DNA from: Ochrobactrum teleogrylli
GTDB taxonomy: Bacteria; Pseudomonadota; Alphaproteobacteria; Rhizobiales; Rhizobiaceae
Assembly (NCBI RefSeq): GCF_006376685.1
Contig: NZ_VEWL01000007.1
Location: forward strand, 124,001 to 188,000
Direction of reading: 5' to 3'
DNA: 64,000 nucleotides
The first letter of the stretch is position 1. Every line of letters starts with the position of its first letter. The notes under the pieces were generated by a model. That model saw only the letters and a program-made list of their open reading frames with translations. It was not told the origin of the DNA and did no database searches. This document shows positions 21,286-30,146 of this stretch, in pieces. Position numbers and translations under genes: made by a program.

Positions 21286-21359
21286 TGGAGCGGGTAGCGG
21301 GAATCGAACCCGCGCGTTCAGCTTGGGAAGCTGACAGGCTACCATTACATCATACCCGC
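21286..21359 (-). tRNA. tRNA-Gly (anticodon CCC)
   Basis: Reading 21359 to 21286 gives a full cloverleaf: acceptor stem GCGGGTA/TACCCGC, anticodon stem TCAGC/GCTGA around TTCCCAA, T-arm with GGTTCGATTCC, discriminator T and an encoded CCA at 21288-21286. A T-run follows the 3' end. The 5' half (21320-21359) lies inside a 65-bp repeat, so this gene is the integration site of the adjacent element. The tRNA remains complete. Confidence 0.95.
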
Positions 21360-21384
21360 AATCTGCAAGATATTTCAGTATCTT
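21320..21384. repeat. Left attachment repeat (65 bp) of the prophage element
   Basis: Identical over 65 bases to 30082-30146 in the same orientation. It covers the tRNA-Gly gene from the anticodon arm to its 5' end plus 25 bases upstream, and ends with a small inverted repeat (AAGATA/TATCTT, 21367-21384) that could be an integrase site. Confidence 0.93.
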
Positions 21385-21437: not shown

Positions 21438-22463
21438 CTATGTTCTCTTTCTGGCCTCGTCAATCTGTTTTATCGTGGCCTCGATAGCTGCCGTTCGGCT
21501 CACATATCGGCGGATAATGTTCCGCACGGTTTCTTCTTCCCATCCCATAATTTCAGCAATTACACGCTCTGACAGACCGGCGATATAGAACTTTGTCGCC
21601 GCCGTCCCACGGAAGTCGTGAAAGTGCAAATCTCTATCGCCAAGCTTGGCTTCTTCTCGGCAGTCGGAAAAAGACGATCCAAATCCGTTTACCGTCCAAG
21701 GTGCCTTCCTGGTATTCGTCAGAACGATAGGCGACCGGCGTGGGATCGTTTGGAGCAATGTCCTCAATTCTGCGTAAAGAGGAATGACCGCTTCCTTCGT
21801 GTGTCGGCTTTTCCCGGTGGGAAGAATTATGGCGTTCTCGGTGATATGAGACCATGACAGGCGCAAAAGATCGCCAGCTCGCAAACCTGTGTGGGCAGCC
21901 AGATCAACCGCCCATGCGACTTCGGGTGAGCATTTCGTTTTAAGCTGCGCGATATCCTGATCTGTCCATATGATGGCAGCGCGGTCATTTTTATAGAGCT
22001 GTTTAATACCTTCACATGGATTTTGGCTAATCTTGCCAAGCGGGTCTACGGCATAGGACAGAACGCGAGAAAGGACTTGCATCCCATAATCTGCCGTTCG
22101 TGGCTTCTCCTCAAATTCCCCGCGCCACTTTCGAATGACTGGCCTTATTTTCTGAGGCCGATCAAACTGCGCGATGCTCAAGTCACCGAATTTCCTGCCG
22201 ATCCTATCCAGCCATCCATTCCAATTGCGTTTCGTGCTGTCGGCTAACTTCTGGTAGTCGTGGCTGGCCTTATATGCCGTAATGACGGCGCGAAATTTGG
22301 AAGCGTCGGGAATTATCCGGCTATCATTCGCCTCTTGAAGCGATGCCATAAATTCAGCCGATCCCGGTTCTCCACGAAGAGCAGGGCCGCCACGCCACGC
22401 ATAGTAATACGTGCGGCCCTTTGCATTGACCTTGTGGACGCCTTTCAAATCAACTGTAACCAT
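21438..22463 (-). CDS. int: Tyrosine recombinase / phage integrase
   Basis: About 341 residues. The catalytic set is visible: Arg in HTGLRAGD, Lys in GKSRHTKE, HDFR (His and second Arg), Trp in MGWEEE at the usual His/Trp position and the nucleophile Tyr in RRYVSR. The N-terminal part is a SAM-like core-binding domain with a YYYAWRGGP start typical of rhizobial prophage integrases. It lies 54 bases from the left repeat and is transcribed towards the tRNA gene. ATG 22463 overlaps the 3' end of the upstream 66-residue gene; a TTG at 22475 is an alternative. It appears intact. Confidence 0.93.
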   Translation of the reverse strand: MVTVDLKGVHKVNAKGRTYYYAWRGGPALRGEPGSAEFMASLQEANDSRIIPDASKFRAVITAYKASHDYQKLADSTKRNWNGWLDRIGRKFGDLSIAQFDRPQKIRPVIRKWRGEFEEKPRTADYGMQVLSRVLSYAVDPLGKISQNPCEGIKQLYKNDRAAIIWTDQDIAQLKTKCSPEVAWAVDLAAHTGLRAGDLLRLSWSHITENAIILPTGKSRHTKEAVIPLYAELRTLLQTIPRRSPIVLTNTRKAPWTVNGFGSSFSDCREEAKLGDRDLHFHDFRGTAATKFYIAGLSERVIAEIMGWEEETVRNIIRRYVSRTAAIEATIKQIDEARKRT

Positions 22464-22650
22464 GCTTTGCTTCAAACGCCCTTAGCTCTTTGTCTAGATC
22501 GCTATCCTGATCAATGACACGTTCGTCGTTGTCTGAATAAATCAGGATTGCCCCATCGGTGCATAATTTAAGCATGACACCGAGGTCTTTGGCTACGGAG
22601 GCAGCGCGGGCTATATCCGCTTTCGTGAAACGAAGTGCCTTCTGTGCCAT
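22450..22650 (-). CDS. Small conserved phage protein upstream of integrase
   Basis: 66 residues beginning MAQKALRFTKADIARAASVAK. I recognise the RFTKADIARA pattern from small genes beside integrases in rhizobial prophages, but no function is established. AAGGAGG six bases before the ATG is an excellent ribosome site. It overlaps the integrase start by 14 bases, suggesting joint expression. An excisionase or regulatory role is possible but unproven. Confidence 0.75.
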   Translation of the reverse strand: MAQKALRFTKADIARAASVAKDLGVMLKLCTDGAILIYSDNDERVIDQDSDLDKELRAFEAKHGYS

Positions 22651-22731
22651 TTAATCCTCCTTTCTGAGATTGTGATTTGTTCTCTGATTGTTCACGGTAT
22701 ATGAGTGACCGCTTGAACAGGGAGAAACGAC

Positions 22732-22965
22732 ATGTCTCGATTTAAAACGATCCGCAATCCGGCGCTTACCGAAGCTGAAAAGCAGCAACTGCTGTCCCGG
22801 ATGATTGCGTTGAAAGAGCTTATGAACAGCTGCTTGACCAATCTGGAGATTGGCAGTGAAGATTATAAGCTTCTGGATCGCCTTGGCAGGGAAGTCATGA
22901 GCGCCGGTGAGACCATTGCGAAGTCTCGGTTTTGGGGTAAGGATTATCACCGCATTGGCCGCTGA
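22732..22965 (+). CDS. Hypothetical phage protein, 77 residues
   Basis: Charged, mostly helical protein with no motif I recognise. GGGAGAAACGAC directly before the ATG is a good ribosome site. It diverges from the 66-residue gene; the 81 bases between them are AT-rich with two TGATTGT repeats and probably hold both promoters. It ends five bases before the convergent 73-residue gene. Confidence 0.65.
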   Translation: MSRFKTIRNPALTEAEKQQLLSRMIALKELMNSCLTNLEIGSEDYKLLDRLGREVMSAGETIAKSRFWGKDYHRIGR

Positions 22966-22970
22966 CATCC

Positions 22971-23189
22971 TCACTCCCTTTCCCGCAGTGCGGCGCGGCT
23001 GGCGTTCATGGCTTCCCATGCGGCAAGCACCTCAGCTGGTTTTGCGAAAGATTTCCTACCAAGCAGGGGCACATCGTCTACATCTGACAAGCGCCACCTG
23101 TCGTTCGTGAGGCGCAATGCAAAGGCGACAACGCTTCCTGCCTCGACAATCCTGTAACAATCCTTATCGAAGCGTTCGAGCTTAGCCAT
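22971..23189 (-). CDS. Hypothetical phage protein, about 72 residues
   Basis: Short protein beginning MAKLERFDKDCYRIV, with no recognised domain. Its start overlaps the 3' end of the HNH gene by eight bases in another frame, indicating coupled translation; a GTG at 23195 is an alternative start. Its position between an early gene and the HNH nuclease fits a phage early region. Confidence 0.6.
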   Translation of the reverse strand: MAKLERFDKDCYRIVEAGSVVAFALRLTNDRWRLSDVDDVPLLGRKSFAKPAEVLAAWEAMNASRAALRERE

Positions 23190-23598
23190 GGTCACCGCCG
23201 TTCAGGGCTTGGCGACCGGCAGAATACCGCTCGAAGTGGAAAACGACTGCTGTTTCATTGACAGTCAGAAGCCCGAACTTTTCAGCGAGACGAAAATTCA
23301 CACTGGTTTTTCGCGCCCGTTCGATCTGCCGTTCTAGTTCCCAACGGAGCCCTTCAATATTCATCGAAGACTTATAGAGATTGCATGACGCGCAGGCAGG
23401 CATGAGGTTTTCAATGGTGTTGTTCTCCGGGCGGAAAACCTCGCCAGTCGGAACAAAACGGCCTGTTGAATAGCCAGTGCTTTCCCATTGAGACTTGCGA
23501 ATGACGGGTTCTGCATGATCGACGTGCCAGCCCTTTTCAGGAAGTTCGCAGCCACAATAAGCGCACTTGCCGCCGAATTTCTGCTTGATCGTCAACAT
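23182..23598 (-). CDS. HNH endonuclease
   Basis: About 138 residues. A CxxC knuckle (CAYC) is followed by HVDHAEP, the HNH catalytic histidines, then asparagine and CASCN, the second zinc knuckle. HNH nucleases in phages commonly act in packaging or as free-standing homing-type nucleases; which applies here is unknown because no terminase is left. The start is uncertain: ATG 23598 has AAGGA placed too close, and TTG 23610 has no clear site. Its 5' end meets the broken tail-tip gene, so the promoter may have been changed by the deletion. Confidence 0.82.
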   Translation of the reverse strand: MLTIKQKFGGKCAYCGCELPEKGWHVDHAEPVIRKSQWESTGYSTGRFVPTGEVFRPENNTIENLMPACASCNLYKSSMNIEGLRWELERQIERARKTSVNFRLAEKFGLLTVNETAVVFHFERYSAGRQALNGGDHG

Positions 23599-24299
23599 TC
23601 CTTGATCCAAGCCAGGATTATCAGGCCACGGACGCCGACCCTTGGGCGGATGAAGACGATGTATCCGAGCGTGGTGAGGAAGCCAGAGACGTACAGTTCA
23701 ACATGGCTCCATCGCATAGTCAGGCTAGACGACTGATGAAGCTCGAATGGTTCCGAGCAAACCCGAACTGGGTAGGAACCTTCAATACGAACCTGATGGG
23801 CCTCGCAGCATTCGGGGAGCGGCTTATCCGTATTCAATACTCGCTATTTGGAATTAACAGTGTTTTTGAAGTCCTTGATTTCAAATTCATTCTTGGTGAA
23901 GGCGGCATCCTTCAGGGTGCGACTATACAGGTTCAGTCCATGCCGCAAGGTGCATACCAGTGGGATAGTTCGCAAGAGGGAACTCCGCCGGTGTCGGATG
24001 AAACAACGCGGGATGACGAACTGCCGGTTCCTGATGCGCCGGATGTCCTCATAATTGATGGTCCTGCCGCCTTACTTGGTTTCCCGCCTACGGGCAACAT
24101 TTTGCTTACTTATATGGTGCGATGGAGAAAGACCGTCGAAACCGAATGGCGGGTAGCCGGGCCGCTGGAAAACAGTGCCGAAAGTTTTGAGACGCCTATC
24201 CTGTCCGCAACGACCCAGTACGAATTCCAGTTGGCAGTACGAACGCAAAAAGGCCGAGTAGGCTCTTACTCAGCCAGCACGATCAAAACGACACCCTGA
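23589..24299 (+). pseudogene. 3' remnant of a phage tail-tip / host-specificity (gpJ-like) gene
   Basis: The frame is open from just after a stop at 23586-23588 to 24299, but has no start codon until an internal ATG at 23703. Translation upstream of that ATG still reads like family sequence (DVQFNMAPSHSQARRL), so the gene has lost its 5' part. The tail end carries a fibronectin type III-like region ending in a Ser/Thr-rich tip. In lambdoid-type phages this protein forms the central tail fibre that contacts the host. If translated from 23703 it would give 198 residues. The break lies next to the HNH gene. Confidence 0.75.
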
Positions 24300-24364
24300 T
24301 TGACCAGACAACCTGAGAAATTCATACCCTGCTTTGGCGGGGTGCTTTGCTATGGAGCATTCGC

Positions 24365-26611
24365 ATGACCGTTCGCACGATTGACGATATTTTTCGCGAT
24401 TTCGTTATTCCTGGCGTTCCTGCTTCGGGTGCATTTAACCCGTACAAGCCAGACATCCGCGATACGTTGAAGGCGCTGCTCGAAGGGATAAGCGCCTTTC
24501 CTGACAACCGCGTTATTCGGTTGAATAATGCCAATCTCGGAACGCCCAATAATATCGTAGTGACAGCCTCCGTTCCTACCCCTGTTGCCGCATATCAGGT
24601 TTTGTACATCCTGAATGTTACTCAGGAAAACACAGGACCGGTTACGATTTCTGGAGCGATAAATCGAAGACTTGTAACGAACACCAGCAAACCTATTCCG
24701 GCGGGCTATCTCACACCGGGAATGGCCGTGCTCTGTATCGACACCGGTACGGAACTTCGCATGTTGTCCTACGGCGAGATGGAGGCCATTGTTAGTGAAG
24801 CCGAAGCGGCAGCAGCGGCGGCAGAAGCGGCGCGCGATCAAGCTTCGAATTACGCTAGTGACGCGCTCACAGGCGGAATGGACCCTGGCATTTCTGCAAC
24901 AACATCGGTTCCGAGCCTTTCAATCCCTGCTGGCGTAAACCATTTCAAGACCGGGGGCTTTGCTTCTGTGGGTGACGGTGGCGGTGCGAACTTCACTAGG
25001 CAAGCCACGGAACCTAACAATGTTGGCAAGATTACGGACGCGAATGGAAACTGGTGGCAGAACGTCGTCGATCTCAATCTGGCACAACGTATTCACGAGG
25101 CCGTTGGCCGAAACTCGATCCGGGTAAACTGCATCGGTGACAGCCTGACCTATGGCTATGATACGACTGCTACCGGAACATTGCCACCGATTAACGGGTC
25201 TACAGCAACGCGTAGTTCGACCCCGTACCCCGACATGCTGGCGCTTTCATTGCAGCATATTTTCGGTTCCGTAACTGTGCGAAACTACGGCTTCCCCGGC
25301 GACCGGGCTAAGAGTGGTTATGAGCGATGGGAAGGAAACCTTGACCCCGCTGATGTATGGTTCATTTGCTACGGCACCAATGAAACGGTTGATATCGGCG
25401 GCTTCGATACGGTCAAGGACTTCCGGCACTCGATGCTTCAATGGATTGACTATGCCCGCTCACAGGGTGCCGTTCCGGTCATTCTGCTCGCTCCGGGTTT
25501 GCGGTCTTCCCCGCAGGCCATGAACGTTCGCTCCTTCAAACAGGCCGCTGCGGAGGCAGCAGCTGACGCAGGCGTGACGTGCATCGATGTGGAACAGCAA
25601 ATCCGTCACATCGCACAGCGCTGGACTGATGGCTCTCATTTGACGCCGGAGGCATATGAGGAATGGGGCGCTCATCTGGCATCATTGTTTGCTGATCGAG
25701 GCGGCAGGGTAAAGCCTGTTGCGGGCGGGAGCCGATTTTCTGCCAGTGATGGCCTTGGGGTTGGTGGTGAGATACTTGGATCAAACGACGCAGTGGACGG
25801 CGCTTTCCTTCGCCTAGATAATGATGTTTTGACTGTTGGCATTGACGCGCAGGAAGATGTTATCCTCATCATCCGGGCATACAATGCGTCAGGTGCGGTT
25901 AATCGCTCTTTCACAATCGTTTATGGCGGCGATATCGTTGCAGGTCGGAATTACGAGGTCTACGACCATATCCAGACAGGCTCACTTACCCCATCTCGCC
26001 GTTTCGTGGGTATGCGTCTCAGCAAGGGATATCGTTGCTTCAAGATCGTACCCATGGGCGGGCAGGCACTATTCATCGAACGAATAGACTTTGTTCGCCC
26101 GGAAGCGAGCGCGCAATCGGTAGCGGGAATAAACAAGCCTCTGCCACTCGTATCAGTCGTGCCGCCCGGTCAGAGCGGAAACTTCCGCATGGTGGACTGG
26201 AGTGAAAAGGTCGTTGGTACATACAATATCTCGACGCACATTCAGGCCAAGGCAGCGGCAATCGTCGGGGCTGGCATCATGGGCGGACGCGATATTTCAA
26301 GTGACAGAGGTTCCAACAATCAGTTGCTTTGGCTTAGAAACGGTACTGACATGCAAATTTATCAGCGTGTCGCTGGTACAGAAGCGCTGATCTATACGGA
26401 GACGGGGGCTTTCGCAGCCGGTGATTTGGATGCCACTGTCGATATGATCATCCAAGCAAGCGGCGCAGCCTCGTTCCTGGTGGATGGCGTTTTGAAAGCT
26501 GATTTTAGCGCTGGGGCGGTCACAATCAGAAGCGGGTTCCCGATGTTTATCTCAACAGGAACCAATGGCAATGTTGCCCGATGCGTCGGGGCTACGCTGA
26601 CGCAGTACTAA
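24365..26611 (+). CDS. Phage tail fibre/spike protein with SGNH hydrolase domain
   Basis: About 748 residues. The N-terminal part (to about 140) resembles a tail attachment domain; an Ala/Glu-rich coiled coil lies near 140-165. An SGNH/GDSL hydrolase follows with GDSL Ser260, block II Gly312, block III GTN (Asn339) and DGSH (Asp422, His425), so the catalytic set is complete. The C-terminal 280 residues are beta-rich, possibly carbohydrate-binding. Such proteins often remove acetyl groups from O-antigen or capsule during adsorption. ATG 24365 has TGGAG upstream; a TTG at 24347 is weaker. A small hairpin at about 24327-24344 separates it from the tail-tip remnant. Confidence 0.85.
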   Translation: MTVRTIDDIFRDFVIPGVPASGAFNPYKPDIRDTLKALLEGISAFPDNRVIRLNNANLGTPNNIVVTASVPTPVAAYQVLYILNVTQENTGPVTISGAINRRLVTNTSKPIPAGYLTPGMAVLCIDTGTELRMLSYGEMEAIVSEAEAAAAAAEAARDQASNYASDALTGGMDPGISATTSVPSLSIPAGVNHFKTGGFASVGDGGGANFTRQATEPNNVGKITDANGNWWQNVVDLNLAQRIHEAVGRNSIRVNCIGDSLTYGYDTTATGTLPPINGSTATRSSTPYPDMLALSLQHIFGSVTVRNYGFPGDRAKSGYERWEGNLDPADVWFICYGTNETVDIGGFDTVKDFRHSMLQWIDYARSQGAVPVILLAPGLRSSPQAMNVRSFKQAAAEAAADAGVTCIDVEQQIRHIAQRWTDGSHLTPEAYEEWGAHLASLFADRGGRVKPVAGGSRFSASDGLGVGGEILGSNDAVDGAFLRLDNDVLTVGIDAQEDVILIIRAYNASGAVNRSFTIVYGGDIVAGRNYEVYDHIQTGSLTPSRRFVGMRLSKGYRCFKIVPMGGQALFIERIDFVRPEASAQSVAGINKPLPLVSVVPPGQSGNFRMVDWSEKVVGTYNISTHIQAKAAAIVGAGIMGGRDISSDRGSNNQLLWLRNGTDMQIYQRVAGTEALIYTETGAFAAGDLDATVDMIIQASGAASFLVDGVLKADFSAGAVTIRSGFPMFISTGTNGNVARCVGATLTQY

Positions 26612-26951
26612 CCTTCCGAAATCCCGTGCATAATTTCTGAAGCAATGTCTTCATGTCCAAAGCTGCGCGGGATTTCCATGTAAGATGAAGAGCACCACCT
26701 GAGATGCCATCTGGTGATAAGCTTTTCAGAAGGCCAAATCTCTCAGCAACGTCAACAACACGTTGCGTCTCATCATCGAAATCGTGGCTATAGTAAACGC
26801 TACCACCGTTGTCTGCCACCCATTGCACTAACCTTAAAAGGCCATGCTGGTCTTCTTCAGACATAATTTCGTTTGGAATAGTTGAACCGACCAGTGTTTC
26901 AATTCTCTGGTCTAAGCGCGCCAATACCTGCAACACTTGCCGAAACCCCAT
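26592..26951 (-). CDS. Hypothetical protein, 119 residues, divergent to radical SAM gene
   Basis: No domain recognised. The protein starts MGFRQVLQVLARLDQRIETL, is acidic and mostly helical, with a short GGSVYY/ALHLTW beta pattern. ATG 26951 has an AGGG seven bases upstream; the frame is open to 27077 but that would run into the radical SAM gene. Its 3' end overlaps the tail gene by 20 bases in convergent orientation. Being the only minus-strand gene in the late region, it looks like an independently expressed cargo gene, possibly tied to the radical SAM gene with which it shares a 101-base divergent spacer. Confidence 0.55.
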   Translation of the reverse strand: MGFRQVLQVLARLDQRIETLVGSTIPNEIMSEEDQHGLLRLVQWVADNGGSVYYSHDFDDETQRVVDVAERFGLLKSLSPDGISGGALHLTWKSRAALDMKTLLQKLCTGFRKVSTASA

Positions 26952-27052
26952 AATTGCCCTGCAACATATTACATCGTCTGGTTGAAGTCGGCAAGCGGGT
27001 TTAATGTGATGCGATGGTTTGACAATCGCGGCTTGGCAATTCATGTTGCAGT

Positions 27053-28483
27053 ATGGCTGGGAAACATGTCGCATCAAAATATGAAACCATCTCCTCTATC
27101 CATCTGTTCATGAGAGGGAGGGAGTACCCGAAGTATCCTGCGAATGTGTTTCTGGAAGTTTCAAACCTTTGCGACCTGAAATGCGCAATGTGCGGACCGT
27201 TTTCTGCACTTAACGACATGCGCCTTTTTTCCTTGAAGGAAGAGGATCGGGGCTTCATGAAGGCCCCGCCACGGGAGAGAATTGAGAATATTCTTCGTCA
27301 CGCCTTGCGGATACAAGTATTCGGATATGGAGAACCGACGCTAAACCCAGACTTTCTCGATTTTCTTGATCTGGCAGGAGAATACGAAACACTCATCAGC
27401 TTCTTCAGCAACGGGATGCATTTCTCCGATGTGGTAGTGAACAAAATCATCGAAAGCCGCGTCCACGAAATTACCATTAGCTTCTCCGGCTCGACCAAGG
27501 AAGATTATGAGGCCGTTTATATGGGGGGCGTGTGGGAGACGGTACTTGCTGGCCTGAAGCTTATCAGTGATCGCAAGAAGGAACGTGGCACTAGTTATCC
27601 AATCATTTCTGTGAATAGCTTGGCGTATCGCCATCACGTCGAGACGCTGGATAGGTTCGTAGACGTCATGGGAGATGCTGGTGTGGGCGTCATCTATTTG
27701 AAGCCGCTCGTTCCTGTTCCAACTGTACCAGTGCTTGGACAGCACGCCTCTATATTCCGCCATTGGGTTGAAGGCCCGGTAATAGAGCGGGCTATTGCCA
27801 AGGCAAAGGAGCGAGGCATTATCTTCAATGCCGATCTGTATTTCTCCGGTGGAGCTACGGATGAAGATCATTACAAAAAGAAGATGAGGGCGCTCCAGCG
27901 TGGATTTGGTCTTAACCCGGATGATCTTCCGCCAGCATTGCCCATCATTGAACTGCGAGAAATAGCGAAATCCGTAACACCTAAAAAGCCGGCGAGAGTT
28001 ACTGTAACCGAGATATCCGGCAACGATTTGGCTTTACTGTCAGCCAGGCCACTCAAAGCAGATGGAATGTACTGCTTGGAGCCGTTCAACACGATGTATA
28101 TCGGGCGAAATCTCGACGTTAAGCCTTGCTGCAACGCACCGTCTACCACCCGGTTTGATAGCGTGAAGGGTAAGACAGGAGAGGATGTATGGGGCGGGAG
28201 CGCCTATTATCAAACACGTAAAGCTATTTTGCGGGGAGAATATCCAAACTTCTGCGTCGATTGCATCAAAGGGGGGAATGCTTATGCGGAGCACAATTTC
28301 GCAGATACGGTAGCCACCTACGGGACGTGGTATACAGAGGTCTTTAAAGACGATTTCAATTGCACTCCTCTCGATACACTTTTAGCTTGTGGGGACAATA
28401 GAAATATTGCTTCACGATGGAGATACACTCAGCACATAAGAGCATTCGCTGGGCTGATGAGATGGTTATCTCAACCGACCTGA
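27053..28483 (+). CDS. Radical SAM / SPASM-domain protein (prophage cargo)
   Basis: 476 residues. Cys40, Cys44 and Cys47 form the CxxxCxxC motif that binds the SAM-cleaving 4Fe-4S cluster, and GYGEPTLNP at 91-99 is the SAM-binding GGE-like strand. The C-terminal part has cysteines 341, 359, 360, 401 and 404 in a SPASM-like arrangement for auxiliary clusters, as in enzymes that modify peptides, proteins or sugars. The substrate is unknown; no precursor peptide is obvious beside it. It lies between tail and lysis genes, the classical site for lysogenic-conversion genes, and is less GC-rich than the host. The start has no strong ribosome site. Confidence 0.85.
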   Translation: MAGKHVASKYETISSIHLFMRGREYPKYPANVFLEVSNLCDLKCAMCGPFSALNDMRLFSLKEEDRGFMKAPPRERIENILRHALRIQVFGYGEPTLNPDFLDFLDLAGEYETLISFFSNGMHFSDVVVNKIIESRVHEITISFSGSTKEDYEAVYMGGVWETVLAGLKLISDRKKERGTSYPIISVNSLAYRHHVETLDRFVDVMGDAGVGVIYLKPLVPVPTVPVLGQHASIFRHWVEGPVIERAIAKAKERGIIFNADLYFSGGATDEDHYKKKMRALQRGFGLNPDDLPPALPIIELREIAKSVTPKKPARVTVTEISGNDLALLSARPLKADGMYCLEPFNTMYIGRNLDVKPCCNAPSTTRFDSVKGKTGEDVWGGSAYYQTRKAILRGEYPNFCVDCIKGGNAYAEHNFADTVATYGTWYTEVFKDDFNCTPLDTLLACGDNRNIASRWRYTQHIRAFAGLMRWLSQPT

Positions 28484-28543
28484 CATCGTAGAGGGTGTAC
28501 AACCATCAGGTCAGTAGAACGGCAGATAAAATATTCTGTCACC

Positions 28544-28566
28544 GCCGCCCACTGAGGCGGCTTTTT
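28544..28566 (+). terminator. Terminator between radical SAM gene and endolysin
   Basis: GCCGCC (28544-28549) pairs with GGCGGC (28556-28561), followed by five T. It isolates the cargo gene from the lysis cassette. Confidence 0.75.
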
Positions 28567-28588
28567 CTTTGCCGAAAGGAAATCACCA

Positions 28589-29272
28589 ATGGCACGACGC
28601 ATCAACGCGGCGGGGCTTTCGCTCGTCAAACAGTGGGAAGGCCTCAAGAATACAGCTTATCGGGATGTTGCCGGTGTCCTAACCATCGGTTACGGCCATA
28701 CGAGCGCAGCCGGTGCGCCTACGGTTACGCCGGGGATGGCAATCGGAGACGCCGAAGCCGAGCGCATCCTGAAAACCGATCTGGCCAAATTCGAGGCGAG
28801 GGTGGAGCGGTTCGTTAAGGTTCCGCTGACCGACAATCAGTTCGCCGCGCTCGTTTCGTTCGACTTCAACACCGGAGCGCTGGATAAGTCCACGCTGCTG
28901 AAGAAGCTGAACAAGGGCGATTATGCCGCCGTTCCGGTCGAACTCATGAAATGGGTGAATGCTGGCGGCAAGAAGGTACAGGGCCTTGTCAATCGCCGGG
29001 CCGCTGAAGCTGGTCTCTGGGCGAAAGGCGATTTCGTATCGTCAAATTACGTTCCAGCGAAGACGACAGCCAATAAGACCGATGTCGCCACGATTGGCGG
29101 TGCCGGTGCTGCTGGTGCAGCGGCAACGGTCGGCCCTGTCATCCCGGAAATTGTCAGCACCATCTCAAATCAGCAGGACGAATTGTCTAGCGGTCAGTGG
29201 GTGCGTGTGGCGATTGCTGGTGTGATTGTCGCTCTGACCCTCTGGGGCATCTGGCGGAAGACGCGCTCATGA
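28589..29272 (+). CDS. Endolysin (GH24 lysozyme) with C-terminal membrane segment
   Basis: 227 residues. The T4-lysozyme-type catalytic triad is intact with normal spacing: Glu17, Asp26 and Thr32. The enzyme domain ends near residue 150, followed by a Gly/Ala-rich linker and one strong membrane helix (about 205-222) with a basic tail. There is no N-terminal signal or SAR helix, so export would depend on a holin or on insertion of the C-terminal helix. AAAGGAAA precedes the ATG. The next gene overlaps its stop by four bases. Confidence 0.9.
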   Translation: MARRINAAGLSLVKQWEGLKNTAYRDVAGVLTIGYGHTSAAGAPTVTPGMAIGDAEAERILKTDLAKFEARVERFVKVPLTDNQFAALVSFDFNTGALDKSTLLKKLNKGDYAAVPVELMKWVNAGGKKVQGLVNRRAAEAGLWAKGDFVSSNYVPAKTTANKTDVATIGGAGAAGAAATVGPVIPEIVSTISNQQDELSSGQWVRVAIAGVIVALTLWGIWRKTRS

Positions 29273-29517
29273 TCTGGGCGCTCATTCCCTCATGGCTGAA
29301 ATACTCGCTCGCTGCCCTTGTGGCGGCGTTTCTACTTCTGGCGGGTGGGTATGTGGCCGGAAGGCTCTCAGGAACGGCCAGCACGGAAACCAAAATCGAA
29401 AGACAGAACAATGAAGCCACAGGCAAAGCTCTGGACGCTGCTCATTCTTATGATGAGTGCATTGACGCTGGCGGGGTGTGGACATTCAGGACCGGCAAAT
29501 GTGAGCGGCGTCCGTAA
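29269..29517 (+). CDS. Rz-like inner-membrane spanin subunit
   Basis: 82 residues from ATG 29269, which overlaps the endolysin stop (ATGA). One N-terminal membrane segment (about residues 8-28) is followed by a charged periplasmic stretch, the shape of an i-spanin. Spanins link inner and outer membrane and disrupt the outer membrane at the end of lysis. Identification rests on topology, position and the overlapping lipoprotein gene rather than clear family sequence, and it is short for an Rz. Confidence 0.7.
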   Translation: MIWALIPSWLKYSLAALVAAFLLLAGGYVAGRLSGTASTETKIERQNNEATGKALDAAHSYDECIDAGGVWTFRTGKCERRP

Positions 29518-29653
29518 CGTCCTCGGAACTGATCTGCTAGGCGCTCGCGGGGCAACCGAGGCGGATCAACGGAAGATCGACCGCACGATAGTGCGCGGAT
29601 GTGCAGGCGGCGTCTGGTCGAAAGACGAGTGCGCTATTCATGACAAAAAATAA
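29411..29653 (+). CDS. Rz1-like outer-membrane lipoprotein spanin subunit
   Basis: 80 residues from ATG 29411 in a different frame, starting inside the Rz-like gene and overlapping it by 107 bases. A lipoprotein signal peptide ends in the lipobox LTLAGC. The mature part is about 60 residues with two further cysteines. Overlapping out-of-frame Rz/Rz1 genes are a hallmark of spanin pairs, which supports both calls. An earlier frame start at 29318 would put about 31 charged residues before the signal and is unlikely. Confidence 0.7.
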   Translation: MKPQAKLWTLLILMMSALTLAGCGHSGPANVSGVRNVLGTDLLGARGATEADQRKIDRTIVRGCAGGVWSKDECAIHDKK

Positions 29654-29668
29654 AAGGGGCGGCGGGTA

Positions 29669-29971
29669 ATGAGCGAAGACTTGAAATGGCTCATGGGTAC
29701 GGCGGTCACGCTGATTGTCTTTTTCAGTGGCGCGCTGATCGCGGCGTTTCGCTCACTGTCCAATTCTCAGCGGAAGGGCGACGATCAGCTTCATGACCGT
29801 GTGAACCGAGTACGAGATGAGTATGTTCGCCGCGTCGATCTTGACGATCACGTAAAGCAATTGCGGGACGGCATGAAAGAGATGCGCGACGAGACACGAG
29901 AAGGTTTGAAAGAGACAAACAAGCGTCTCGACCAAGTGCTGGCCGTGCTGGCGTCAGATAAAAAACCTTAA
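29669..29971 (+). CDS. Small phage membrane/coiled-coil protein
   Basis: 100 residues: one membrane helix (about 8-28) then a highly charged helix likely to form a coiled coil to the C-terminus. The design recalls XhlA-type proteins and small phage lysis accessory proteins, but I cannot assign it firmly. AGGGGCGGCGGGTA lies before the ATG. It is the last gene before the right repeat and may supply part of the missing holin function. Confidence 0.65.
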   Translation: MSEDLKWLMGTAVTLIVFFSGALIAAFRSLSNSQRKGDDQLHDRVNRVRDEYVRRVDLDDHVKQLRDGMKEMRDETREGLKETNKRLDQVLAVLASDKKP

Positions 29972-30081: not shown

Positions 30082-30121
30082 AGCTTGGGAAGCTGACAGG
30101 CTACCATTACATCATACCCGC
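30082..30121 (-). pseudogene. tRNA-Gly 5'-half fragment in the right repeat
   Basis: The 40 bases from the 5' end (GCGGGTA at 30121-30115) to the anticodon arm of tRNA-Gly(CCC) are repeated here without the 3' half. It is a by-product of site-specific integration and cannot give a functional tRNA. Confidence 0.88.
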
Positions 30122-30146
30122 AATCTGCAAGATATTTCAGTATCTT
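30082..30146. repeat. Right attachment repeat (65 bp) of the prophage element
   Basis: Identical copy of 21320-21384, including the tRNA 5' half and the terminal AAGATA/TATCTT inverted repeat (30129-30146). Confidence 0.93.

What the first reader, a model, noticed from the sequence alone, without database searches (positions are those of the whole stretch)
27053..28483. Radical SAM/SPASM enzyme carried as prophage cargo between tail and lysis genes
Complete CxxxCxxC and a SPASM-like set of five C-terminal cysteines sit in a gene flanked by phage tail and lysis genes and closed by its own terminator, the usual position of lysogenic-conversion genes. It survived while capsid and packaging genes were lost, which hints at selection. 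It might modify a surface sugar, a phage tail protein or a peptide, or act in defence; it is not an obvious viperin.
Basis: partly seen in the sequence, partly recalled or inferred. Interest (0 to 1): 0.75.

Follow-up and report, generated by a model that had tools for sequence, protein, structure and literature searches.

The report
Radical enzyme in phage surface-sugar slot
A broken-down bacterial virus left in this genome still carries a radical-chemistry enzyme in a spot where related viruses carry genes that change the sugars on the bacterial surface, so it probably alters a surface sugar, although this has not been tested at the bench.

Summary
Window 27053-28483 encodes an intact 476-aa radical SAM protein (C40-x3-C44-x2-C47). 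Its family-invariant C-terminal cysteines fit a one-cluster 'twitch' domain of the BtrN type better than a two-cluster SPASM. It lies in an 8,762-bp tRNA-Gly-integrated prophage remnant with perfect 65-bp att repeats; a junction at 23593-23595 has removed head, packaging and most tail genes. Prophages that share the tail-fibre N-terminus show that the interval between fibre and endolysin is a cargo slot. In 19 of 22 distinct prophages it holds glycosyl-, acyl-, rhamnan- or methyltransferase-family genes (three loci have gtr-type sets or parts of them); one more holds a heparinase. None of 66 control proteins from the same loci matched such families. The nearest solved structures are BtrN and cytosylglucuronate decarboxylase, which act on a cyclitol and a sugar nucleoside. 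Five near-full-length relatives (34-39% in the best segment) lie on non-phage contigs; two are fused to sulfotransferases. Best reading: a lysogenic-conversion enzyme that oxidises or epimerises a surface-glycan sugar by radical chemistry. Substrate and reaction are inferred. Peptide maturation, tail modification and viperin-like defence are less likely.

The parts
21286..21359 (-). tRNA-Gly (CCC), integration target, still intact
   Evidence: ARAGORN
21320..21384 (.). left att repeat, 65 bp, overlaps the 5' part of the tRNA gene
   Evidence: perfect direct repeat, spacing 8762; the two flanks overlap in a single copy of that length at the empty site of congener G024 (locus L039)
21438..22475 (-). 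tyrosine integrase
   Evidence: Phage_integrase E 3.9e-17; phrog_1 E 5.3e-43; 79% identical copy in congener G029
23182..23610 (-). HNH endonuclease fragment; its N-terminal part is missing at the junction
   Evidence: phrog_2118 positions 170-277 of 301
23593..23595 (.). junction: DNA homology to fibre-bearing prophages starts here in 29 of 29 loci (duplicates included; 14 at 23593, 15 at 23595)
   Evidence: first seen
23703..24299 (+). C-terminal fragment of the central tail (J-like) protein with a weak fn3 match
   Evidence: phrog_5616 positions 413-623 of 873; the matching protein is about 590 aa in L050, L052 and L055
24347..26611 (+). tail fibre; N-terminus conserved in the lineage, tip with SGNH/GDSL hydrolase (residues 262-438)
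26592..27077 (-). 161-aa antisense ORF, orphan; may not be a gene
   Evidence: no match in Pfam (0.01), NCBIfam (0.1) or PHROGs (0.01); found only in its own genome among 35 of the genus
27053..28483 (+). radical SAM / twitch enzyme (the finding)
27170..27193 (+). codons of C40-x3-C44-x2-C47 (radical SAM cluster)
   Evidence: invariant in 6 of 6
28073..28264 (+). twitch domain cysteines C341, C359, C360, C401, C404
   Evidence: invariant in 6 of 6; C341, C359, C401, C404 aligned with BtrN cysteines
28544..28569 (+). terminator-like hairpin at the right side of the cargo slot
28589..29272 (+). phage lysozyme / endolysin
   Evidence: Phage_lysozyme E 5.4e-46; 79-97% identical in 8 congener copies aligned
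29197..29653 (+). two overlapping small ORFs after the endolysin, Rz/Rz1-like by eye
   Evidence: the Rz/Rz1 name is by eye only
29669..29971 (+). small phage protein, 100 aa
   Evidence: phrog_6664 E 2.3e-10
30082..30146 (.). right att repeat

Best explanation
It is a lysogenic-conversion gene in a decayed prophage. The enzyme uses SAM and a [4Fe-4S] cluster to pull a hydrogen atom from a sugar unit of the host's surface polysaccharide or its precursor. With help from one auxiliary cluster it leaves that sugar oxidised (keto) or inverted (epimer), so the surface no longer matches the receptor used by this or related phages. Shown here: the protein, its cysteines, the prophage remnant, and that the slot it occupies mostly holds glycan-modifying genes in prophages of the same lineage. 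Inferred: that this gene follows the slot's rule, the sugar substrate, the reaction (dehydrogenation and epimerisation about equally likely), expression, and the phage-exclusion benefit.
For: Slot survey: of 22 distinct fibre-anchored prophages other than the window, 19 carry a glycosyl-, acyl-, rhamnan- or methyltransferase-family gene between fibre and endolysin and 1 more a heparinase. L072 has GT2 and GtrII by HMM and a GtrA-like ORF by eye. None of 66 non-slot proteins from the same set of loci matched such families. Loci anchored on lysis genes: acyltransferases in L044, L048 and L051, GtrA plus GT2 in L046. Profile search of solved structures: BtrN (cyclitol dehydrogenase) best at 2.1e-8 with the twitch cysteines aligned, then cytosylglucuronate decarboxylase at 0.003. 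Relatives L062 and L063 are fused to sulfotransferases, L062 also to a methyltransferase. Low GC (49% against 56% for the window) fits imported cargo.
Against: No substrate, phenotype or expression data. The rSAM gene is in none of the other prophages found, so function is assigned by position. Most of the BtrN score comes from the twitch domain (28.9 of 36.5 bits; core 5.6). The next hits after cytosylglucuronate decarboxylase include a peptide maturase, SkfB, at 0.0085. Three of five relatives have no recognised second domain, and the neighbours of L061 and L064 look unrelated to glycans by eye. Lysis-anchored loci L042, L043, L047, L049, L050, L057 and L059 gave no glycan gene in what I scanned (one protein each of L043, L047, L049, L057) or read by eye. 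In the fibre-anchored set L070 has no slot ORF of 200 aa or more, and the 666-aa protein of L041 (= L079) has no Pfam match. A glycan change by an rSAM enzyme alone, without its own transferase, would be unusual (judgement).
Confidence: 0.62

Rival explanations
1. Radical SAM maturase of a ribosomal peptide (RiPP) or other protein substrate encoded nearby or in the host.
For: SPASM/twitch proteins often mature peptides (recalled); weak local matches to peptide-maturase models such as WgkB and HxsC, far below cut-off; SkfB among the PDB profile hits at 0.0085. Several 22-58-aa plus-strand ORFs with GTG/TTG or ATG starts lie just upstream (26704-27113) and were not tested.
Against: None of the 25 NCBIfam families shown (of 29 matched) reached its cut-off. 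Five family-invariant C-terminal cysteines, one-cluster type. Only 39 residues precede C40, too short for a recognition domain of usual size (recalled). The upstream small ORFs overlap the antisense 161-aa ORF or the rSAM start and none has a known family. Slot neighbours in relatives are mostly glycan genes.
Confidence: 0.12
2. It modifies the phage's own tail fibre or another virion protein, which explains its place next to the fibre gene.
For: Adjacent to the fibre gene; fibre tips vary between relatives.
Against: Slot content does not track fibre tips: of 10 locus pairs with fibre-tip matches of 200 aa or more, 1 shares cargo. No other fibre-bearing prophage found carries an rSAM gene. The slot's usual content is glycan enzymes.
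Confidence: 0.06
3. Anti-phage defence by a viperin-like modified nucleotide.
For: PADLOC pVip models match the radical SAM core at E 1.6e-6 and 0.001.
Against: The matches cover only residues 35-149 and 38-147, the generic core. Other radical SAM models match better, and a twitch domain is present. Viperin motifs were not otherwise tested; that prokaryotic viperins make ddhCTP is from a passage of PMC12926258.
Confidence: 0.05
4. A non-functional passenger: cargo caught in a decayed prophage with no present role.
For: The prophage is broken; one allele only; no promoter-like site above chance; no copy in the other 34 genomes of the genus.
Against: Full-length open frame with every family-invariant residue kept (the window row is part of that alignment), in a slot with a clear functional theme.
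Confidence: 0.15

Closest known systems
BtrN, 2-deoxy-scyllo-inosamine dehydrogenase (PDB 4M7S, 4M7T)
   Same: Radical SAM plus one-cluster twitch domain; twitch cysteines and a YGEP motif align. Acts on a sugar-like cyclitol (PMC9012708, passages).
   Different: 476 against about 270 residues in the chains, with a longer stretch between core and twitch; an extra invariant C360 where BtrN has F in the alignment; antibiotic pathway, not phage cargo.
Cytosylglucuronate decarboxylase BlsE (PDB 7VOB) / TIGR04466
   Same: Radical SAM core similarity; sugar-nucleoside substrate (by name).
   Different: Match limited to profile positions 85-225, E 0.003; NCBIfam score 23.9 against a cut-off of 400.
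Serotype-conversion cassettes of temperate phages (gtrA-gtrB-gtr(type), oac; Shigella phages such as SfIV)
   Same: Prophage-borne change of surface polysaccharide. GtrA, GT2, GtrII and acyltransferase genes sit in this same slot in related prophages.
   Different: In the Shigella phages the genes lie next to int-attP (PMC3851460, passages), here between tail fibre and endolysin; the window's cargo is a radical SAM enzyme, not a transferase.
NF033640 twitch domain-containing radical SAM proteins
   Same: Shares radical SAM and twitch domains (best NCBIfam hit, 77.4 bits).
   Different: Below the curated cut-off of 170; the stretch that matches residues 340-406 here is at model positions 4-71, so the order looks permuted.

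Membership tests
Radical SAM superfamily | CxxxCxxC and Pfam Radical_SAM above cut-off | tested here: met
   44.9 bits against 29.5; C40/C44/C47 invariant in 6 of 6
SPASM | Pfam SPASM above cut-off | tested here: inconclusive
   window protein 20.2 bits against 21.5, but all five relatives exceed the cut-off (31.3-77.9 bits); the Pfam model does not separate SPASM from twitch (recalled)
SPASM with two auxiliary clusters | about seven or more conserved C-terminal cysteines (number recalled) | tested here: not met
   five family-invariant C-terminal cysteines; two further cysteines of the window protein are not invariant
Twitch (one auxiliary cluster, BtrN type) | four cysteine ligands in a truncated SPASM domain | tested here: met
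   C341, C359, C401, C404 align with BtrN cysteines; definition from PMC9012708 passages. The cluster itself is not testable here.
BtrN-like dehydrogenase or NeoN/HygY-like epimerase | reaction on a sugar-type alcohol | not testable with these tools
NF033640 twitch radical SAM | score above curated cut-off | tested here: not met
   77.4 against 170 bits
Prokaryotic viperin | full-length match to pVip models | tested here: not met
   residues 35-149 only, profile positions 5-105 of 257, E 1.6e-6
RiPP radical SAM maturase | equivalog match above cut-off | tested here: not met
   none of the 25 families shown of 29
RiPP radical SAM maturase | precursor peptide gene nearby | tested here: inconclusive
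   small plus-strand ORFs exist upstream; none was tested further
Phage serotype-conversion cassette | located in the lineage's conversion slot | tested here: met
Phage serotype-conversion cassette | encodes a glycosyl- or acyltransferase | tested here: not met
   no such gene in the window's slot
Phage serotype-conversion cassette | changes surface antigen or receptor | not tested
   needs bench work
Functional prophage | head, packaging and tail genes present | tested here: not met
   element only 8,762 bp; genes on both sides of 23593 are truncated

The most novel reading that the evidence does not exclude
A phage changes its host's surface by radical chemistry: instead of adding a glucosyl or acetyl group, it carries a twitch radical SAM enzyme that oxidises or inverts a carbon of a sugar already in the surface glycan, as a single-gene receptor-masking device. 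The same small enzyme family is built into large sulfotransferase and methyltransferase fusion proteins in other bacteria.
Probability: 0.4. Interest if true: 0.78.

Novelty: new variant of a known kind. Interest (0 to 1): 0.58.

Why it matters
The surface conversion described for Shigella phages uses glucosyl- or acetyltransferases (PMC3851460, abstract start and passages). A radical SAM enzyme in that role would widen the chemistry of lysogenic conversion and give a small, rare enzyme family (relatives in five other assemblies here) a testable substrate class. The survey also defines a discrete fibre-endolysin cargo slot in this prophage lineage, useful for finding further unknown surface-modifying enzymes by position alone.

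Tried and rejected
Fibre-cargo co-inheritance: I tested whether similar fibre tips travel with similar cargo among 23 loci (window included). Of 10 locus pairs with tip alignments of 200 aa or more, 1 (L045-L083) shared cargo. Not supported.

Phage satellite instead of remnant: considered because int, fibre, cargo and lysis genes remain. Rejected because both genes at the junction are truncated and homology to 29 of 29 relatives starts at 23593 or 23595, with nothing matching in 22500-23592 at E 1e-10. The 29 loci include the same prophages twice (L041/L079, L052/L073, L054/L076, L055/L081, L086/L087, judged by equal ORF lengths, slot lengths or identical stretches). A recombination between two phages, rather than a simple deletion, is not excluded.

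Antisense ORF 26592-27077 as a partner: no family match, no relative in the genus. Left unexplained.

Host name: not given by the tools. The nearest named link is Ochrobactrum sp. MT180101, 88% identical over a 12-kb plasmid stretch of congener G034. Two other look-ups did not settle it; two further fetched stretches (L170, L171) were not searched.

Rows dropped: the slot scan used 43 of 44 slot proteins (the window's own left out). The control scan used 66 of 80 control proteins: I left out 14, namely 8 long upstream proteins (777-999 aa), one lysozyme, two J-like fragments and three from the window's own locus. The fibre survey left out L067 and L055/L081 (contig ends inside the slot) and L090 (30% fibre match only). 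The Pfam listing for A5 shows only 25 of 39 families. Of the 80 lysozyme loci (149 were found, 80 kept), none was analysed further except where the same prophage appears in the fibre set.

Full report
WHAT IS THERE. Window 27053-28483 (+) is one intact ORF of 476 aa. It matches Pfam Radical_SAM above the curated cut-off and SPASM just below it. The best NCBIfam hits are a twitch radical SAM subfamily (NF033640, 77.4 bits against a cut-off of 170) and a tungsten-cofactor maturase (TIGR04317, 76.3 against 380); none of the 25 families shown of 29 reached its cut-off. The family-invariant cysteines are C40, C44, C47 and C341, C359, C360, C401, C404.

THE ELEMENT. Perfect 65-bp direct repeats at 21320-21384 and 30082-30146, 8,762 bp apart, bound the element. 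The left copy overlaps the 5' part of tRNA-Gly(CCC). In congener G024 (locus L039) the two flanks overlap by 65 bp, i.e. an empty site with one copy of the repeat. IMG/VR holds the 8,534-bp core (21438-29971) as an identical provirus, L002, probably from the same strain. From left to right: integrase, small ORFs, a truncated HNH gene, the C-terminal fragment of a J-like tail protein, a tail fibre with an SGNH/GDSL hydrolase tip, the radical SAM gene, endolysin and small lysis-type ORFs. Homology with fibre-bearing prophages starts at 23593 or 23595 in 29 of 29 loci searched (duplicates included), and nothing in 22500-23592 matches them at E 1e-10. The HNH match covers profile positions 170-277 of 301 and the tail match positions 413-623 of 873: both genes at the junction are cut. 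So head, packaging and most tail genes are gone, through a deletion or a recombination at this point.

HOST. The genome is 4.76 Mb in 43 contigs, in a genus of 35 held genomes. The only named link is Ochrobactrum sp. MT180101 (88% over 12 kb of a congener's plasmid), so the host is probably an Ochrobactrum-type bacterium. Some taxonomies merge that genus with Brucella (recalled); I could not tell which species this is.

THE SLOT. Among congeners, endolysins 79-97% identical (8 aligned with the window's) and fibre N-termini 64-69% identical (6 aligned with the window's) are shared, but what lies between them differs. With the fibre N-terminus alignment as query, 25 viral contigs were found, L002 among them. 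Adding the congener loci and removing duplicates, incomplete contigs (L067, L055/L081) and a weak match (L090) leaves 22 distinct prophages besides the window: L045, L053, L068-L080 (13), L082-L086 (5), L088 and L089. In 19 of 22 the slot holds at least one gene of a glycosyl-, acyl-, rhamnan- or methyltransferase family: L045, L053, L068, L071-L078, L080, L082-L086, L088, L089 (for L073 the same-length slot of L052 with the same ORFs was scanned; L076 is counted on the FkbM methyltransferase seen). L069 holds a heparinase II/III and, by size and the rve match, a transposase piece. L070 has no ORF of 200 aa or more. L079 (= L041) has an unassigned 666-aa protein and a DUF3800 protein. L072 has a GtrII glucosyltransferase (E 1.5e-10), a GT2 and a GtrA-like ORF (by eye); L082 and L053 have a GT2 and small ORFs 52% and 45% identical to that of L072. 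The whole-set scan of 43 slot proteins gave 10 with group-1 glycosyltransferase, 8 with family-2 glycosyltransferase and 7 with Acyl_transf_3 matches, among others. The control, 66 other proteins of 200 aa or more from the same set of loci, gave tail, capsid, integrase, regulator and single restriction or Abi-type families and no glycan family (20 families, all shown). Loci anchored on the lysis genes instead add acyltransferases in L044 (two), L048 and L051 and GtrA plus GT2 in L046. Against this, L049 has an outer-membrane barrel, L047 and L057 small DUF4258 and HTH genes, and L042, L043, L050 and L059 nothing recognised (of these only one L043 protein was scanned, the rest read by eye). A conserved hairpin lies at the right side of the slot: the exact 30-mer occurs in 11 of 173 loci, 4 of them copies of this element and 7 others (L049, L058, L068, L077, L082, L084, L085; 5 of the 22 surveyed prophages); in L085 it is about 2.5 kb before the endolysin.

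RELATIVES OF THE ENZYME. No relative in 34 other genomes of the genus at E 0.001, none in 396 others of an order sample at 1e-20, none but itself in 289 genomes of a class sample with a profile at 1e-30. In annotated phages 1 record and in plasmids 19 records matched, none over 80% of the query and at most 29% identical in the rows listed; in viral contigs only the identical L002 and a partial 24% match, L003. A scan of the species-genome collection with six peptide patterns, which finds close relatives only, gave 25 stretches, of which 5 encode near-full-length relatives at 34-39% (best segment), all in metagenome-assembled genomes: Enhydrobacter (L061), Thiotrichales (L062), Chromatiaceae (L063), Gammaproteobacteria (L064), Thiomargarita (L065). 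L062 is a 1,798-aa protein with a sulfotransferase, two radical SAM/SPASM units and a methyltransferase; L063 ends in a Stf0 sulfotransferase; L061, L064 and L065 show no further Pfam domain. In a search of those five genomes, L062's has three matching units, two of them in this one protein. Weaker relatives in a phylum sample (11 of 397 other genomes at 1e-10; 22-30% over the core) include, by eye, fusions to hexapeptide-type acetyltransferases (L011, L015) and to a glycosyltransferase and methyltransferase (L004).

HOW IT PROBABLY WORKS. With the six-row profile, the best solved structures are BtrN (2.1e-8 and 4e-8), then cytosylglucuronate decarboxylase (0.003), SkfB (0.0085), a lipid synthase (0.029) and PqqE (0.11). 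The BtrN match is mostly the twitch domain (28.9 bits) with a weak core match (5.6 bits), so it supports a one-cluster, BtrN-type design more than a specific reaction. BtrN oxidises a cyclitol, and its auxiliary cluster is held by four cysteines (PMC9012708, passages). NeoN is described as a putative radical SAM epimerase of an aminoglycoside (PMC10991966, passages). In the family C360 is an extra invariant cysteine where BtrN has a phenylalanine in the alignment; since one cysteine separates epimerase from dehydrogenase behaviour in HygY (title only, in the reference list seen), C360 is a test point, though PCC is common in SPASM-type domains (recalled). Putting slot and fold together, I commit to oxidation or inversion of a sugar in surface glycan or its precursor, leading to receptor change in the lysogen. 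Slot and protein are shown; substrate, reaction and benefit are inferred.

RIVALS. Peptide maturation lacks an equivalog match and a recognition domain of usual size; small upstream ORFs exist and were not tested. Tail modification is not supported, since fibre tips and cargo do not travel together (1 of 10 pairs). Viperin-like defence rests on a generic core match. A dead passenger cannot be excluded, since only one allele is known.

LITERATURE. Searches for radical SAM with prophage/tail fiber/SPASM (1 paper), O-antigen/lysogenic conversion, seroconversion/prophage/O-antigen, SPASM/polysaccharide/sulfotransferase, lipopolysaccharide/epimerase/glycosyltransferase/phage and serotype (15 of 55 listed) showed no radical SAM enzyme described as phage surface-conversion cargo. 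I saw listings only, apart from passages of PMC12926258 (viperins) and PMC8743553. The latter lists a 'radical SAM metalloprotein' in a Campylobacter jejuni methylation/capsule-biosynthesis cluster and a putative sulphotransferase near another radical SAM gene, a chromosomal precedent for the association. In Shigella phages conversion genes sit next to int-attP (PMC3851460, passages), unlike here.

VERDICT. A real gene in a real conversion slot, with a plausible and testable sugar-modifying role; a new variant of a known kind.

Noticed in passing
window 24347-26611: The tail fibre tip carries an SGNH/GDSL hydrolase domain (residues 262-438), possibly an esterase acting on the host glycan; the tip resembles that of L078 weakly (24% over 308 aa).
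   Followed up: partly
window 26592-27077 (-): 161-aa antisense ORF between fibre and cargo with no family match and no relative in the genus.
   Followed up: partly
window 28544-28569 and loci L049, L058, L068, L077, L082, L084, L085: Identical hairpin-containing 30-mer at or near slots of prophages with different endolysins; possibly a recombination joint as well as a terminator.
   Followed up: partly
window 28589-29272: The endolysin is close to the gene-transfer-agent endolysin model BgtA (237.7 bits against a cut-off of 315).
   Followed up: no
L062:8492-13888: 1,798-aa protein with sulfotransferase, two radical SAM/SPASM units and a methyltransferase in one chain.
   Followed up: no
L079:12536-14536 (= L041:2899-4899): 666-aa slot protein without any Pfam match; by position a candidate unknown glycan enzyme.
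   Followed up: no
L053:5425-7101, L082:9422-11005, L074:13674-14939: Slot ORFs next to GT2 genes without Pfam matches, perhaps serotype-specific membrane transferases by position.
   Followed up: no
window 21320-21384: The att core overlaps the 5' part of the tRNA gene, including the anticodon region, rather than the more usual 3' end (usual position recalled).
   Followed up: no
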